Origin: Pseudomonadota bacterium
GTDB taxonomy: Bacteria; Pseudomonadota; Gammaproteobacteria; Burkholderiales; Burkholderiaceae_C
NCBI GenBank assembly: GCA_029779845.1
Contig: JAKOZT010000044.1
Location: forward strand, 1-64,000
Reading direction: 5' to 3'
DNA length: 64,000 nucleotides
The notes below the pieces were generated by a model that was not told the DNA's origin, ran no database searches, and was given only the letters and a program-made list of their open reading frames with translations. The translations under genes and the position numbers were made by a program. Shown piece after piece: positions 47,764 through 51,525 of this stretch. The number at the start of each line of letters is the position of its first letter. Within the stretch, counting starts at the first letter, position 1.

Positions 47764-48675
47764 CTACAGGTGGAAGTCGCCCGCGGCTTCCGGCTGGTAC
47801 AGCACCTTCCCGATGCGGATGCAGCACGTCCGCTGCGGAATCCGCCAGTCGAAGGCGTCGCCCTCGCGGCAGCCCAGGATCGCGGTGCCGATGCCCGAGC
47901 AGACCGACAGCTTCCCGGCGCCGTCGTCCGCATGCTCGGGGTAGACCAGCGCCACTTCCACTTCCTCGTCGTCCAGGTGCAGCAAGGCCCTGGAGTTCAT
48001 CGTGACGACGTCCCGCGGCACCTGGCGCGCATCGACGACGATGGCGCGCTCGATCTCGTGCTCCAGTTCGAAAACGGCCGAGGCCTGTTCGAGTGCGACC
48101 AGCGTTCTGAGGCGGGCCTGGTCGATCTCGGTGATGTGGATGCTGCCGGCAGGGCCTGAAGGACTGTCGCGCAGCAGCCGCAGGTAGCGCGGCGCGGTCA
48201 TGGCGAAGGACAGCAGCGCCGGCGTCTCGCGTTCGAGCAGGAAGCCGCAACGCTGGAAGAGCTTCAGCGAGCGCGCGTTGTCCGGCTGGATCCTGGCGAC
48301 GAGCTTCTCGGCGCGCATCTCGAAGAACGCCAGCTTCATGGCTTCGCGGAGGAGGCCGGCGCCGAGCCGGCGGCCCCAGTCGCGGCGGTTGCCGATGACC
48401 AGGACCATCTCCCAGTCCGACCCCGCCTTGACGAGACGCACGAAGCCCACCGGCGCGTCGTGCCGGTCGCAGGCCATGAAGAACCGGCCGCCCTGGTTGA
48501 ACAGAGGGGTCAGGACAGGCAGCTGGACCCGGCTGACGGCCTGCTCGATGAAGCGGGAGACATGCCGCGAATCGCTCAGGTGGCGGGTGATGCGCTCGTC
48601 TTCCAGCCAGTCCATCAGCGTCAACGCGTCGGCCCGGGTGATCTCGGGCCGCAGCGAAACGAAGGGCGGGTTCAT
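47764..48675 (-). CDS. GNAT acetyltransferase fused to a C-terminal GreA/Rnk-like domain
   Basis: N-term ...VLVIGNRRDWGRRLGAGLLREAMKLAFFEMRAEKLVARIQPDNARSLKLFQRCGF (GNAT); C-term VVTMNSRALLHLDDEEVEVALVYPEHADDGAGKLSVCSGIGTAILGCREGDAFDW...VLYQPEAAGDFHL (Rnk/GreA_GreB C). Confidence 0.88.
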   Translation of the reverse strand: MNPPFVSLRPEITRADALTLMDWLEDERITRHLSDSRHVSRFIEQAVSRVQLPVLTPLFNQGGRFFMACDRHDAPVGFVRLVKAGSDWEMVLVIGNRRDWGRRLGAGLLREAMKLAFFEMRAEKLVARIQPDNARSLKLFQRCGFLLERETPALLSFAMTAPRYLRLLRDSPSGPAGSIHITEIDQARLRTLVALEQASAVFELEHEIERAIVVDARQVPRDVVTMNSRALLHLDDEEVEVALVYPEHADDGAGKLSVCSGIGTAILGCREGDAFDWRIPQRTCCIRIGKVLYQPEAAGDFHL

Positions 48676-48677
48676 CT

Positions 48678-49562
48678 TCACGCCGGCAACGCTTCGCAGG
48701 GAGCGCCGTCCCAGAAGCCGCTGAGCAGGTTGTCGGGGCGCGTGCGCGACACCACACGGCCGCACGAAGGCCATGCATCGCGCCGGGCACTCAGTCCGGC
48801 GTAGAGGCTGAATCCGGCGCCGGTGCGGATGCTGCCGCCGCTGACGACGCATTCGCCGGCGCGGATGGCGCCCTCGCCCGTGATGTCCGATCCCGCAACG
48901 ATGCCCCAGCCGGCGTCGATGTGCATGCCGCTGCGAATCGAGCCGCCGGCCTGGATCCCGTGCCCGGCGCGCAGGCCCTCCGTGCACGCCAGATCGCCGC
49001 CGACCTGCAGGCTCCTGGCGCAATGAACCATGCCCTCGACCTCGAGATCCTCGGCCACCACGATCGACCCCTCGCCACGCAACGCCGCCCCGCAGGCCAG
49101 GGCCCCGCGGACGCGCAGATCGCCGCCGCACGTCAAGGCGCCGTGCACCTCGACGCTCCAGGACGAGACCAGATGGCCCCCGGTTCGCAGCGAGCCGAGT
49201 GTGCGCAGGCCCGCGCCGGCGTGCAGGTCGTCGCCGACCGAGACGGCATTGCCGGCGCGAATGCTGCCGCCGGCCCGCAGCGAGCCGCCCGTGCGAAGCA
49301 CCGAGTCGACGTCCACCTCGCCGCGCACCTGGACCGAGCCCGCATGGACGAAGGCGTCCGCAGAGATGGCATCGACCACGAGAACGGAGTCGATGGGGCC
49401 GAACCGGTCCAGCAGCCAGCAGGCGTCGTCGACGCGTCCGTCCGCAACGAGCGCGTCGATCACGCTCTGGTACTCGGACGGGCTGTCGAAACGCCGTGCG
49501 AACCAGCGGTAGCCGCTGACACAGGAGCGCTTGGCCCGCAGTGCGGTTGAACTGATCTTCAT
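48678..49562 (-). CDS. Hexad-repeat beta-solenoid protein of unknown function
   Basis: 27 uninterrupted six-residue repeats, [L/I/V]xxxxx, from LRTGGS to IRTGAG. Confidence 0.85.
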   Translation of the reverse strand: MKISSTALRAKRSCVSGYRWFARRFDSPSEYQSVIDALVADGRVDDACWLLDRFGPIDSVLVVDAISADAFVHAGSVQVRGEVDVDSVLRTGGSLRAGGSIRAGNAVSVGDDLHAGAGLRTLGSLRTGGHLVSSWSVEVHGALTCGGDLRVRGALACGAALRGEGSIVVAEDLEVEGMVHCARSLQVGGDLACTEGLRAGHGIQAGGSIRSGMHIDAGWGIVAGSDITGEGAIRAGECVVSGGSIRTGAGFSLYAGLSARRDAWPSCGRVVSRTRPDNLLSGFWDGAPCEALPA

Positions 49563-49804
49563 CGGGCACCGCCCCGCGGCTCGGCGGCCGCCGGCGCACC
49601 CGCCCGCAGCCACCAGTCCATGCAGGCCTGGAGGTTGAGCATGTGCTCACGCTCGATGCATCCGTAGAGGAACCAGGCGAGCTGCCAGCATCTCTGCGGA
49701 TGCCAGGCTGTCGGGCCGAGCGTGCGCTCGACAAAGAAGATTTCCACGAGGCGATCCTTCAGTGGCAGGGTGCGCGTTTGCCGAAGGCGGATGCACACCG
49801 ACAC
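49559..49804 (-). CDS. 81-aa hypothetical protein
   Basis: (GTG)SVCIRLRQTRTLPLKDRLVEIFFVERTLGPTAWHPQRCWQLAWFLYGCIEREHMLNLQACMDWWLRAG...; ATGA overlap with the solenoid gene. Confidence 0.6.
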   Translation of the reverse strand: MSVCIRLRQTRTLPLKDRLVEIFFVERTLGPTAWHPQRCWQLAWFLYGCIEREHMLNLQACMDWWLRAGAPAAAEPRGGAR

Positions 49805-50013: not shown

Positions 50014-51525
50014 TCAGCGCCCGAGCGAGATGCGCGTCGCCGCGAAGCCGTGCTGCGCGCCCGGATTCACCATCGGCAGCGTGTCCTTGAAGGCCGCGCT
50101 GGGCATGGTCTGCGCCAGCGTGCTGGCGGCGTCGGCGGCCCACATCAGCACCGCGCGCGCGCTCATCGGCCGCGCGATCAGGTAGCCCTGCAGCTGATGG
50201 CAGCCCAGGCGCACCGCGGCGTCGCGTTGCGCCTCGGTCTCCACGCCCTCGGCCACCACGCGCAGGCCCAGCTCGCGCGCGGCCCGCACGGCGCTCTCGA
50301 CCATCGCGCGCGCGTCGTGGCTGCGCGCCAGCGCGGCCACGGTGGCGCGGTCGATCTGCAGCTCGCGCACCGGCTGGTGCGCGAGCGCCGCCAGCCCGGC
50401 CGCGCCGGCCGCGAAGTCGTCGATCGCCACCTCCACGCCCAGCGCCGCCAGCCGCGCGAAGGCCTTGCGCGTGGCTTCGGTGTTCTCCATCGCCACCGCC
50501 TGCGTCAGCTCGCACAGCAGGCCGTCGGCCGGCACGCCGTGCGCCTTCATGCCGCGCTCCAGGCGCGCCGCGAAATCGTCCTGGCGGAACTGCATGCCCG
50601 ACACGTTCACCGCCACGCGCAGCTTCACGTCGGCCTGGCGCCACGCGGCGGCCTGGCGCAGCGCGGCGTCGAGCGCCCAGCCGCCGATGGTCTCGATCAG
50701 GCCATGGCGCTCGGCCACGGGGATGAAGCGCGCCGGGCTGACCAGCCCGAGCGTCGGGTGGCGCCAGCGCAGCAGCGCCTCGACGGCGCTGACCTTGAGC
50801 GTCGCCGCGTCGATGCGCGGCTGGAAGAACAGCTCGAGCTGGCGCTTGACCACCGCGTGCTGCAGCTCGCGCGCGATCAGCACTTCCTCGTTGTGCGTGG
50901 CGTCGATGCGCGCGTCGAACACCGCGTGGGCGTGGCCGCCGCTGCGGCGCACCGCCTGCATCGCCGCCGCGGCGCGGCCGATCAGGCGCGCGCCGCCGCC
51001 GTGCTCGGGCGCGACGGCCAGGCCGACCGAGAGCGGCACGGCGAGCGCGCGGCCGTCGACGTCCAGCGGCGCGTCGAAGGTCTGCACGAGGCGCTGCGCG
51101 AGCTTCTCGCCGGCCTCGCGCGGCGCGTCGAGCCAGACGCCGAAGGCATCGGCATCGATGCGCGCCAGCAGCGTCGTGGCGCCGACCGCGCCGCGCAGCG
51201 CGGCCGCCGCGGCCGCCAGCGCGCGCTCGGCGCAGGCCGCGCCGGCGTCGTCGCGCAGCAGGCGCAGGTCGTCGACGCCGATCGCCAGCAGGCAGGCGTC
51301 GCGCCCGGCCTTCTCGACGGCGGCGCAGCGCTCCTGCACCAGCCGCTCGAAGCTGGCCAGCGCCGGCAGGCCGGTGAGGGTGTCGAGCACGGCGGTGTTC
51401 GCGGGGCTCTGCGCGGCGGCCGGCTTGGCCGGGGCGCGCCGGCGCCGCCATGCGACGGCGCCGAGGGCGGCGGCGGCCAGCGCGATGGCGGCGGCGCCGG
51501 CGATCGGGAGAAGATCGAAGTTCAT
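50014..51525 (-). CDS. GGDEF-EAL domain protein, degenerate GGDEF and altered EAL
   Basis: LDTLTGLPALASFERL; ARIDADAFGVWL in the GGDEF position; VEALLRWRHPTLGLVSPARFIPVAERHGLI; CELTQ; IDDFAAGAAGL; ELQIDR; VAEGVET. Confidence 0.92.
   Translation of the reverse strand: MNFDLLPIAGAAAIALAAAALGAVAWRRRRAPAKPAAAQSPANTAVLDTLTGLPALASFERLVQERCAAVEKAGRDACLLAIGVDDLRLLRDDAGAACAERALAAAAAALRGAVGATTLLARIDADAFGVWLDAPREAGEKLAQRLVQTFDAPLDVDGRALAVPLSVGLAVAPEHGGGARLIGRAAAAMQAVRRSGGHAHAVFDARIDATHNEEVLIARELQHAVVKRQLELFFQPRIDAATLKVSAVEALLRWRHPTLGLVSPARFIPVAERHGLIETIGGWALDAALRQAAAWRQADVKLRVAVNVSGMQFRQDDFAARLERGMKAHGVPADGLLCELTQAVAMENTEATRKAFARLAALGVEVAIDDFAAGAAGLAALAHQPVRELQIDRATVAALARSHDARAMVESAVRAARELGLRVVAEGVETEAQRDAAVRLGCHQLQGYLIARPMSARAVLMWAADAASTLAQTMPSAAFKDTLPMVNPGAQHGFAATRISLGR

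What the first reader, a model, noticed from the sequence alone, without database searches (positions are those of the whole stretch)
47764..49804. Three-gene coupled operon: 81-aa protein, hexad-repeat solenoid, GNAT-Rnk fusion
Seen: 49804-49559 overlaps 49562-48678 by ATGA, and 48675-47764 starts 2 nt after the solenoid stop. None of the three parts is a standard partner of the others as far as I know. A repetitive scaffold plus an acetyltransferase tethered to an RNA polymerase-binding-type domain suggests a regulatory or assembly module (inference). This is my leading candidate for an undescribed system.
Basis: partly seen in the sequence, partly recalled or inferred. Interest (0 to 1): 0.72.

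Follow-up and report, generated by a model that had tools for sequence, protein, structure and literature searches.

The report
Beta-solenoid beside GNAT-Rnk stress gene
Three neighbouring bacterial genes make a small protein, a rigid rod-like repeat protein and an acetyltransferase fused to an RNA-polymerase-binding domain; the trio is not a fixed system, but the rod protein repeatedly sits next to the same kind of RNA-polymerase-binding gene in other bacteria, which suggests they work together in a stress response nobody appears to have studied.

Summary
In detail: three same-strand ORFs, ATGA overlap, then a 2-nt gap. The 303-aa protein is an N-acetyltransferase fold joined to an Rnk/GreA C-terminal domain. 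It is widespread, highly conserved (70-79% identity) and usually stands alone. The 294-aa protein is an unnamed family: a 55-aa helical cap shared with E. coli YdhT, a 30-strand hexad beta-solenoid (AlphaFold2 pLDDT 90) and a conserved tail. The 81-aa protein is seen only in this genome and three Roseateles/Pelomonas-type loci. The contiguous trio occurs here and in one relative. In two other relatives a universal stress protein (Usp) gene splits it, and all three relatives carry Rnk and Usp genes upstream, so the trio looks like a trimmed Rnk-Usp stress cluster. The reproducible signal is solenoid with Rnk-domain gene: linked in 6 of 26 surveyed solenoid loci (about 1.4% expected), scattered over the solenoid tree in differing gene orders. 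GNAT-Rnk and solenoid also co-occur in nine genera, usually unlinked. Best guess: stress-time RNA-polymerase modulation by Rnk-domain proteins, with the solenoid as a non-enzymatic scaffold. That mechanism is inferred. Verdict: new variant of a known kind, moderate interest.

The parts
49559..49804 (-). 81-aa small protein, first gene (GTG start at 49804 uncertain; an in-frame GTG lies at 49750)
   Evidence: core PQRxxQ(L/I)AWF(L/V)YGxxEREHxLNxxACxxWW conserved in L003, L018, L037; between these homologs differences fall mainly in third codon positions of the core, e.g. 11/3/15 at positions 1/2/3 against L018; no family in Pfam, NCBIfam, PHROGs or PADLOC
48678..49562 (-). 294-aa hexad-repeat beta-solenoid protein, second gene; start overlaps the previous stop (ATGA)
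   Evidence: AlphaFold2 pLDDT 90.0, pTM 0.85
49395..49562 (-). N-terminal helical cap domain of the solenoid protein (residues 1-56), shared with E. coli YdhT
   Evidence: BLASTP E 9e-6 to YdhT; hhalign probability 93.7, E 2e-7; bridging protein in L137; alignment A6
48840..49385 (-). beta-solenoid, about residues 60-241, period 6, about 30 short strands
   Evidence: DSSP on model; periodicity
48678..48839 (-). conserved C-terminal tail of the solenoid protein (G(Y/F)xxYAGL...W...LxSGxW)
   Evidence: alignments
47764..48675 (-). 303-aa GNAT-Rnk fusion, third gene, 2 nt after the solenoid stop
48226..48654 (-). N-acetyltransferase (GNAT, Acetyltransf_3 / SpeG-like fold) domain, residues 8-150
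   Evidence: Pfam PF13302 E 5.8e-14; Foldseek to SpeG structures E about 2e-9
47767..48144 (-). Rnk-like domain (Rnk_N + GreA/GreB C-terminal), residues 178-303
   Evidence: Pfam PF14760, PF01272; NF004396 E 1.7e-27, just below its cut-off; PDB 3bmb and 2pn0 by sequence and fold

Best explanation
The three genes are a trimmed, translationally coupled remnant of a Rnk/universal-stress-protein gene cluster. The Rnk half of the third protein most likely binds RNA polymerase as E. coli Rnk does and so brings the acetyltransferase half to the polymerase, where it would modify the polymerase or a neighbouring factor, or compete with GreA/GreB/DksA, under stress. The solenoid protein is most likely a non-enzymatic rod: a helical cap plus about ten coils of beta-solenoid that acts as a scaffold for Rnk-domain (and possibly Usp) proteins. 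The 81-aa protein would be a lineage-specific accessory. SHOWN: gene arrangement, domain identities, predicted solenoid fold, recurrent solenoid/Rnk-domain linkage, co-occurrence in genomes. INFERRED: polymerase binding (from homology), acetylation target, scaffold role, stress setting (from Usp neighbours only), and the trimming of the cluster (from comparison with relatives).
For: Rnk half matches E. coli Rnk (3bmb, E 1.6e-17; fold TM 0.81 of target), and Rnk is reported to bind RNA polymerase and compete with Gre factors and DksA (PMC4598747). Three relatives carry the larger cluster: L018/L037 Rnk, Usp, small protein, solenoid, Usp, GNAT-Rnk; L003 the same without the second Usp; a fourth locus, L002, has Rnk, Usp, GNAT-Rnk without solenoid (Usp and GreA_GreB confirmed by Pfam for representatives). 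In a family survey not chosen for Rnk, 6 of 26 solenoid loci lie near an Rnk-domain gene and 4 near a Usp gene, against about 1.4% expected for Rnk (naive P about 1e-6; about 4e-4 if only four events are independent). Linked loci fall in seven separate places on the solenoid tree with differing gene orders. GNAT-Rnk in 17 of 301 genomes, solenoid in 30, both in 9 genomes of 9 genera (Fisher P about 4e-6, or 5e-6 collapsed by genus). In seven of the nine the two genes are unlinked, so linkage alone does not explain co-occurrence. The solenoid has no enzyme-family match above cut-off and a confident all-solenoid model.
Against: 20 of 26 surveyed solenoid loci have no Rnk-domain gene nearby and sit in other neighbourhoods, for example next to a TonB receptor and a putative transporter, so the solenoid also works without a linked Rnk. 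GNAT-Rnk is usually solitary. GNAT residues are atypical: the glycine of the acetyl-CoA loop is K/R/N/Q in 28 of 28 homologs and the usual tyrosine is F140 in all, so catalysis is not assured. E. coli rnk deletion has no phenotype under normal growth (PMC4598747). Co-occurrence statistics are not fully corrected for phylogeny or shared habitat. No complex was modelled.
Confidence: 0.4

Rival explanations
1. The two proteins are functionally independent; they share stress or low-energy regulation or habitat, and the operon here is a chance fusion of neighbours within a stress gene cluster.
For: Most solenoid and GNAT-Rnk genes are unlinked to each other; gene order changes between clades; Rnk and Usp genes found upstream in relatives are absent from this window.
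Against: Linkage to Rnk-domain genes recurs in seven places on the solenoid tree with different orders, and co-occurrence holds where the genes are unlinked.
Confidence: 0.35
2. The solenoid is a bactofilin-like, self-polymerising cytoskeletal element.
For: Bactofilin profile weakly matches 8 of 14 members (best 1.3e-4; window protein 0.0058, below its 27.9-bit cut-off) and a bactofilin structure (6ria) at 0.0024; similar hexad solenoid.
Against: Below cut-off for the window protein; the match covers only residues 137-192, leaving a helical cap and long tail unexplained; no Foldseek match to any solved structure below E 0.7; FapA matches more members (9 of 14).
Confidence: 0.15
3. The GNAT half is a pseudo-enzyme or ligand sensor (for example for acyl-CoA or polyamine) that regulates the Rnk half rather than an acetyltransferase. 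This can hold together with the best explanation's scaffold part.
For: Acetyl-CoA loop glycine replaced by K/R/N/Q and catalytic-type tyrosine replaced by F140 in 28 of 28 homologs; closest folds include allosteric SpeG enzymes.
Against: The rest of the domain is strongly conserved (W100, G101, R102, G105, N133, S136 invariant), and many RimJ-type GNATs lack the tyrosine (own knowledge, not tested).
Confidence: 0.25

Closest known systems
E. coli Rnk (PDB 3bmb; NF004396)
   Same: C-terminal 125 residues of the third protein align end to end (E 1.6e-17; fold TM 0.81 of target).
   Different: Fused behind a GNAT domain; scores 95.9 bits against a cut-off of 109 for the Rnk equivalog.
SpeG / Acetyltransf_3 GNAT enzymes
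   Same: Fold of residues 8-150 (PF13302 E 5.8e-14; Foldseek E about 2e-9).
   Different: Atypical acetyl-CoA loop (W-G-R-[KRNQ]-L-G) and Phe for Tyr; fused to Rnk.
E. coli YdhT (NF007410; last gene of ydhYVWXUT)
   Same: Same N-terminal cap of about 52 residues followed by a glycine-rich repeat.
   Different: YdhT repeats have period 9, here period 6; C-termini unrelated; YdhT sits with an oxidoreductase set, FNR-activated in E. coli (PMC3688515); no FNR-like site found upstream of 28 solenoid genes.
Bactofilin (PF04519) and FapA beta-solenoid (PF03961)
   Same: Hexad beta-solenoid; weak profile matches in 8 and 9 of 14 members.
   Different: The window protein is below the bactofilin cut-off and does not match FapA at E 1; helical cap and tail extra; no close solved fold.

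Membership tests
Rnk / GreA-GreB C-terminal family | GreA_GreB C-terminal domain above Pfam cut-off | tested here: met
   47.5 bits vs 26.9
Rnk / GreA-GreB C-terminal family | Rnk N-terminal domain above Pfam cut-off | tested here: met
   24.5 bits vs 23.7, marginal
Rnk / GreA-GreB C-terminal family | Rnk equivalog (NF004396) above cut-off | tested here: not met
   95.9 vs 109 bits: Rnk-like domain, not an Rnk ortholog
Rnk / GreA-GreB C-terminal family | Binds RNA polymerase | not testable with these tools
   inferred from Rnk (PMC4598747)
GNAT acetyltransferase | GNAT fold | tested here: met
   Pfam PF13302 and PF00583 above cut-off; Foldseek
GNAT acetyltransferase | Canonical acetyl-CoA loop with central glycine | tested here: not met
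   position 103 is K/R/N/Q in 28 of 28
GNAT acetyltransferase | Acetyl transfer activity | not testable with these tools
   needs assay
Bactofilin | Pfam PF04519 above cut-off | tested here: not met
   17.3 vs 27.9 bits for the window protein
Bactofilin | Solenoid of hexads | tested here: met
Bactofilin | Polymerises into filaments | not testable with these tools
   needs purified protein
YdhT | Shared N-terminal cap | tested here: met
YdhT | Full-length match to NF007410 | tested here: not met
   only residues 5-46 match, 18.1 vs 300 bits
YdhT | Nine-residue repeats | tested here: not met
   period 6 here, 9 in YdhT
Known anti-phage defence system | PADLOC profile match | tested here: not met
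   none for any of the three

The most novel reading that the evidence does not exclude
A so far undescribed polymerase-directed stress module: a beta-solenoid rod that organises Rnk-domain factors, including an acetyltransferase tethered to RNA polymerase, that is, a modification enzyme physically docked on bacterial RNA polymerase.
Probability: 0.15. Interest if true: 0.8.

Novelty: new variant of a known kind. Interest (0 to 1): 0.42.

Why it matters
A review in the held library lists E. coli Rnk as a secondary-channel binder of unknown function (PMC4598747). A conserved natural fusion of an Rnk domain to an acetyltransferase fold, and a rod-like protein that repeatedly accompanies Rnk-domain and Usp genes, give two concrete partners with which the role of Rnk could be tested. 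The solenoid family itself has no name in Pfam or NCBIfam.

Tried and rejected
FNR-type regulation, suggested by YdhT: no FNR-like site within 500 bp upstream of any of 28 solenoid genes, and 1 of 82 upstream of GNAT-Rnk, about background. Defence system: no PADLOC match. Plasmid cargo: among plasmid records the solenoid is found only on large Cupriavidus replicons, GNAT-Rnk on none at E 1e-30. A class-wide search for the small protein (185 genomes) found only this genome. Foldseek with the solenoid model gave no match below E 0.7. PPR-protein hits of the solenoid profile cover only residues 28-53 inside helical repeats and were judged repeat artefacts. Literature searches for the GNAT/Rnk combination, for Rnk with Usp and hexapeptide, and for ydhT with ydhV found nothing relevant.

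Full report
OBSERVATION. Third-position GC is high in all three. The hexad repeat is far beyond chance: in residues 57-250, 97% of one 6-residue phase is aliphatic, and 0 of 500 shuffles reach that.

THIRD GENE. The 303-aa protein carries an Acetyltransf_3 domain (5.8e-14), an Rnk N-terminal domain and a GreA/GreB C-terminal domain (1.8e-12). The Rnk half aligns with the E. coli Rnk structure 3bmb and the Nitrosomonas structure 2pn0 by sequence and by predicted fold (the AlphaFold2 model has mean pLDDT 76.8). The GNAT half resembles SpeG spermidine acetyltransferases. Eighty close relatives (70-79% identity) were fetched from Beta- and Gammaproteobacteria. In most of them the gene has no solenoid nearby and no conserved neighbour. 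It is a well conserved, mostly solitary fusion protein. In alignment with solved GNATs the central glycine of the acetyl-CoA loop is replaced by K, R, N or Q in 28 of 28 homologs, and the usual tyrosine is an invariant phenylalanine at position 140, so activity cannot be taken for granted.

SECOND GENE. The 294-aa protein has no family above cut-off in Pfam or NCBIfam. Across 14 members the weak matches are FapA, bactofilin and hexapeptide-type solenoids. AlphaFold2 gives a confident model (pLDDT 90, pTM 0.85): a helical N-terminal region (its first 19 residues at low confidence), about 30 short strands with spacing near six, and a short C-terminal part. Foldseek finds no solved structure below E 0.7, so the exact solenoid type is unsettled. 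The N-terminal 52-56 residues match E. coli YdhT (BLASTP 9e-6; hhalign 2e-7). A protein in L137 bridges the two: its cap matches the solenoid family (E 1.9e-12) and its repeat and C-terminus are of YdhT type. YdhT and that protein have nine-residue repeats, the window family six-residue ones. The same cap is found in a few phage proteins, one annotated ydhT and one 'collagen-like'. The cap is therefore a module found on different glycine-rich repeats.

FIRST GENE. The 81-aa ORF has relatives only in L003, L018 and L037, with a conserved core of about 30 residues whose differences fall mainly in third codon positions. It was not found in 184 other genomes of the class. Its start codon is uncertain.

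CONTEXT. In L018 and L037 the order is Rnk, Usp, small protein, solenoid, Usp, GNAT-Rnk; in L003 the second Usp is missing and 124 nt separate solenoid and GNAT-Rnk; in L002 there are Rnk, Usp and GNAT-Rnk without the solenoid (Usp and GreA_GreB by Pfam for representatives). The window has only the last part of this cluster. In Rhodocyclales-type genomes the solenoid directly precedes GNAT-Rnk (L028, L033, L039, L053, L056, L078); in L029 the order is reversed. Elsewhere a stand-alone Rnk gene precedes the solenoid (L100, L115, L127), or Rnk then Usp do (L121, L122).

STATISTICS. In 301 genomes of the window's family the solenoid occurs in 30, GNAT-Rnk in 17 and both in 9 genomes of 9 different genera (Fisher P about 4e-6; collapsed by genus 5e-6). 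In only two of the nine (this one and G478) are the genes adjacent. Of 26 solenoid loci from this survey, 6 have an Rnk-domain gene within the roughly 13-kb stretch examined and 4 a Usp gene; the Rnk expectation from five GreA/Rnk-domain genes in the window's own genome is about 1.4% per locus. On the solenoid tree, Rnk-linked members lie in seven separate places (counted by reading the tree, some deep branches weakly supported). Either the linkage is ancestral and often lost, or it arose repeatedly; both point to a functional tie. The figures are not corrected for habitat and only roughly for relatedness.

MECHANISM. E. coli Rnk is reported to bind RNA polymerase and to compete with Gre factors and DksA, with unknown function (PMC4598747). 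The most economical reading is that the Rnk half docks the acetyltransferase fold at RNA polymerase under stress, and that the solenoid is a rigid, non-enzymatic scaffold for Rnk-domain proteins. Domain identities, linkage and co-occurrence are shown; polymerase docking, acetylation, scaffolding and stress timing are inferred.

NOVELTY. Each protein falls within, or next to, a known kind: GNAT plus Rnk, and a capped beta-solenoid. The combination and the solenoid family appear undescribed in the sources searched, which hold open-licence papers only. That is a new variant of a known kind, not a categorically new system.

Noticed in passing
L137:751-1710 (-), L149:1192-2739 (+): Proteins with the same N-terminal cap followed by long, near-perfect nine-residue repeats (NARIGSSGY type); YdhT-like proteins with strongly amplified repeats.
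   Followed up: partly
LC644975.1 7830-8168; AP014629.1 31410-31571 (phage records): Phage proteins, annotated ydhT and collagen-like, carry the same cap domain.
   Followed up: no
L103 (G011:C1:4298864-4299741): The solenoid gene appears split by a frame change in this relative, possibly a decaying copy.
   Followed up: no
L028:2870-3064, L033:2895-3044, L039:251-433, L053:3064-3264, L056:2872-3069, L078:728-793 (+): A different short conserved ORF (MNVHNHSIWPPP...) lies just before the solenoid in Rhodocyclales-type genomes; it may be a peptide or conserved upstream DNA. Unrelated to the 81-aa protein.
   Followed up: no
window 50014-51525 (-): The gene upstream of the trio reads like a GGDEF/EAL-type protein (by eye only); its end is 209 nt before the stated start of the 81-aa ORF.
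   Followed up: no
L003, L018, L037 vs window: The Rnk and Usp genes present upstream in relatives are missing from this window; a stand-alone Rnk-like gene lies elsewhere in the genome (C47:10657-10875, 62% identical to the L018 Rnk).
   Followed up: partly
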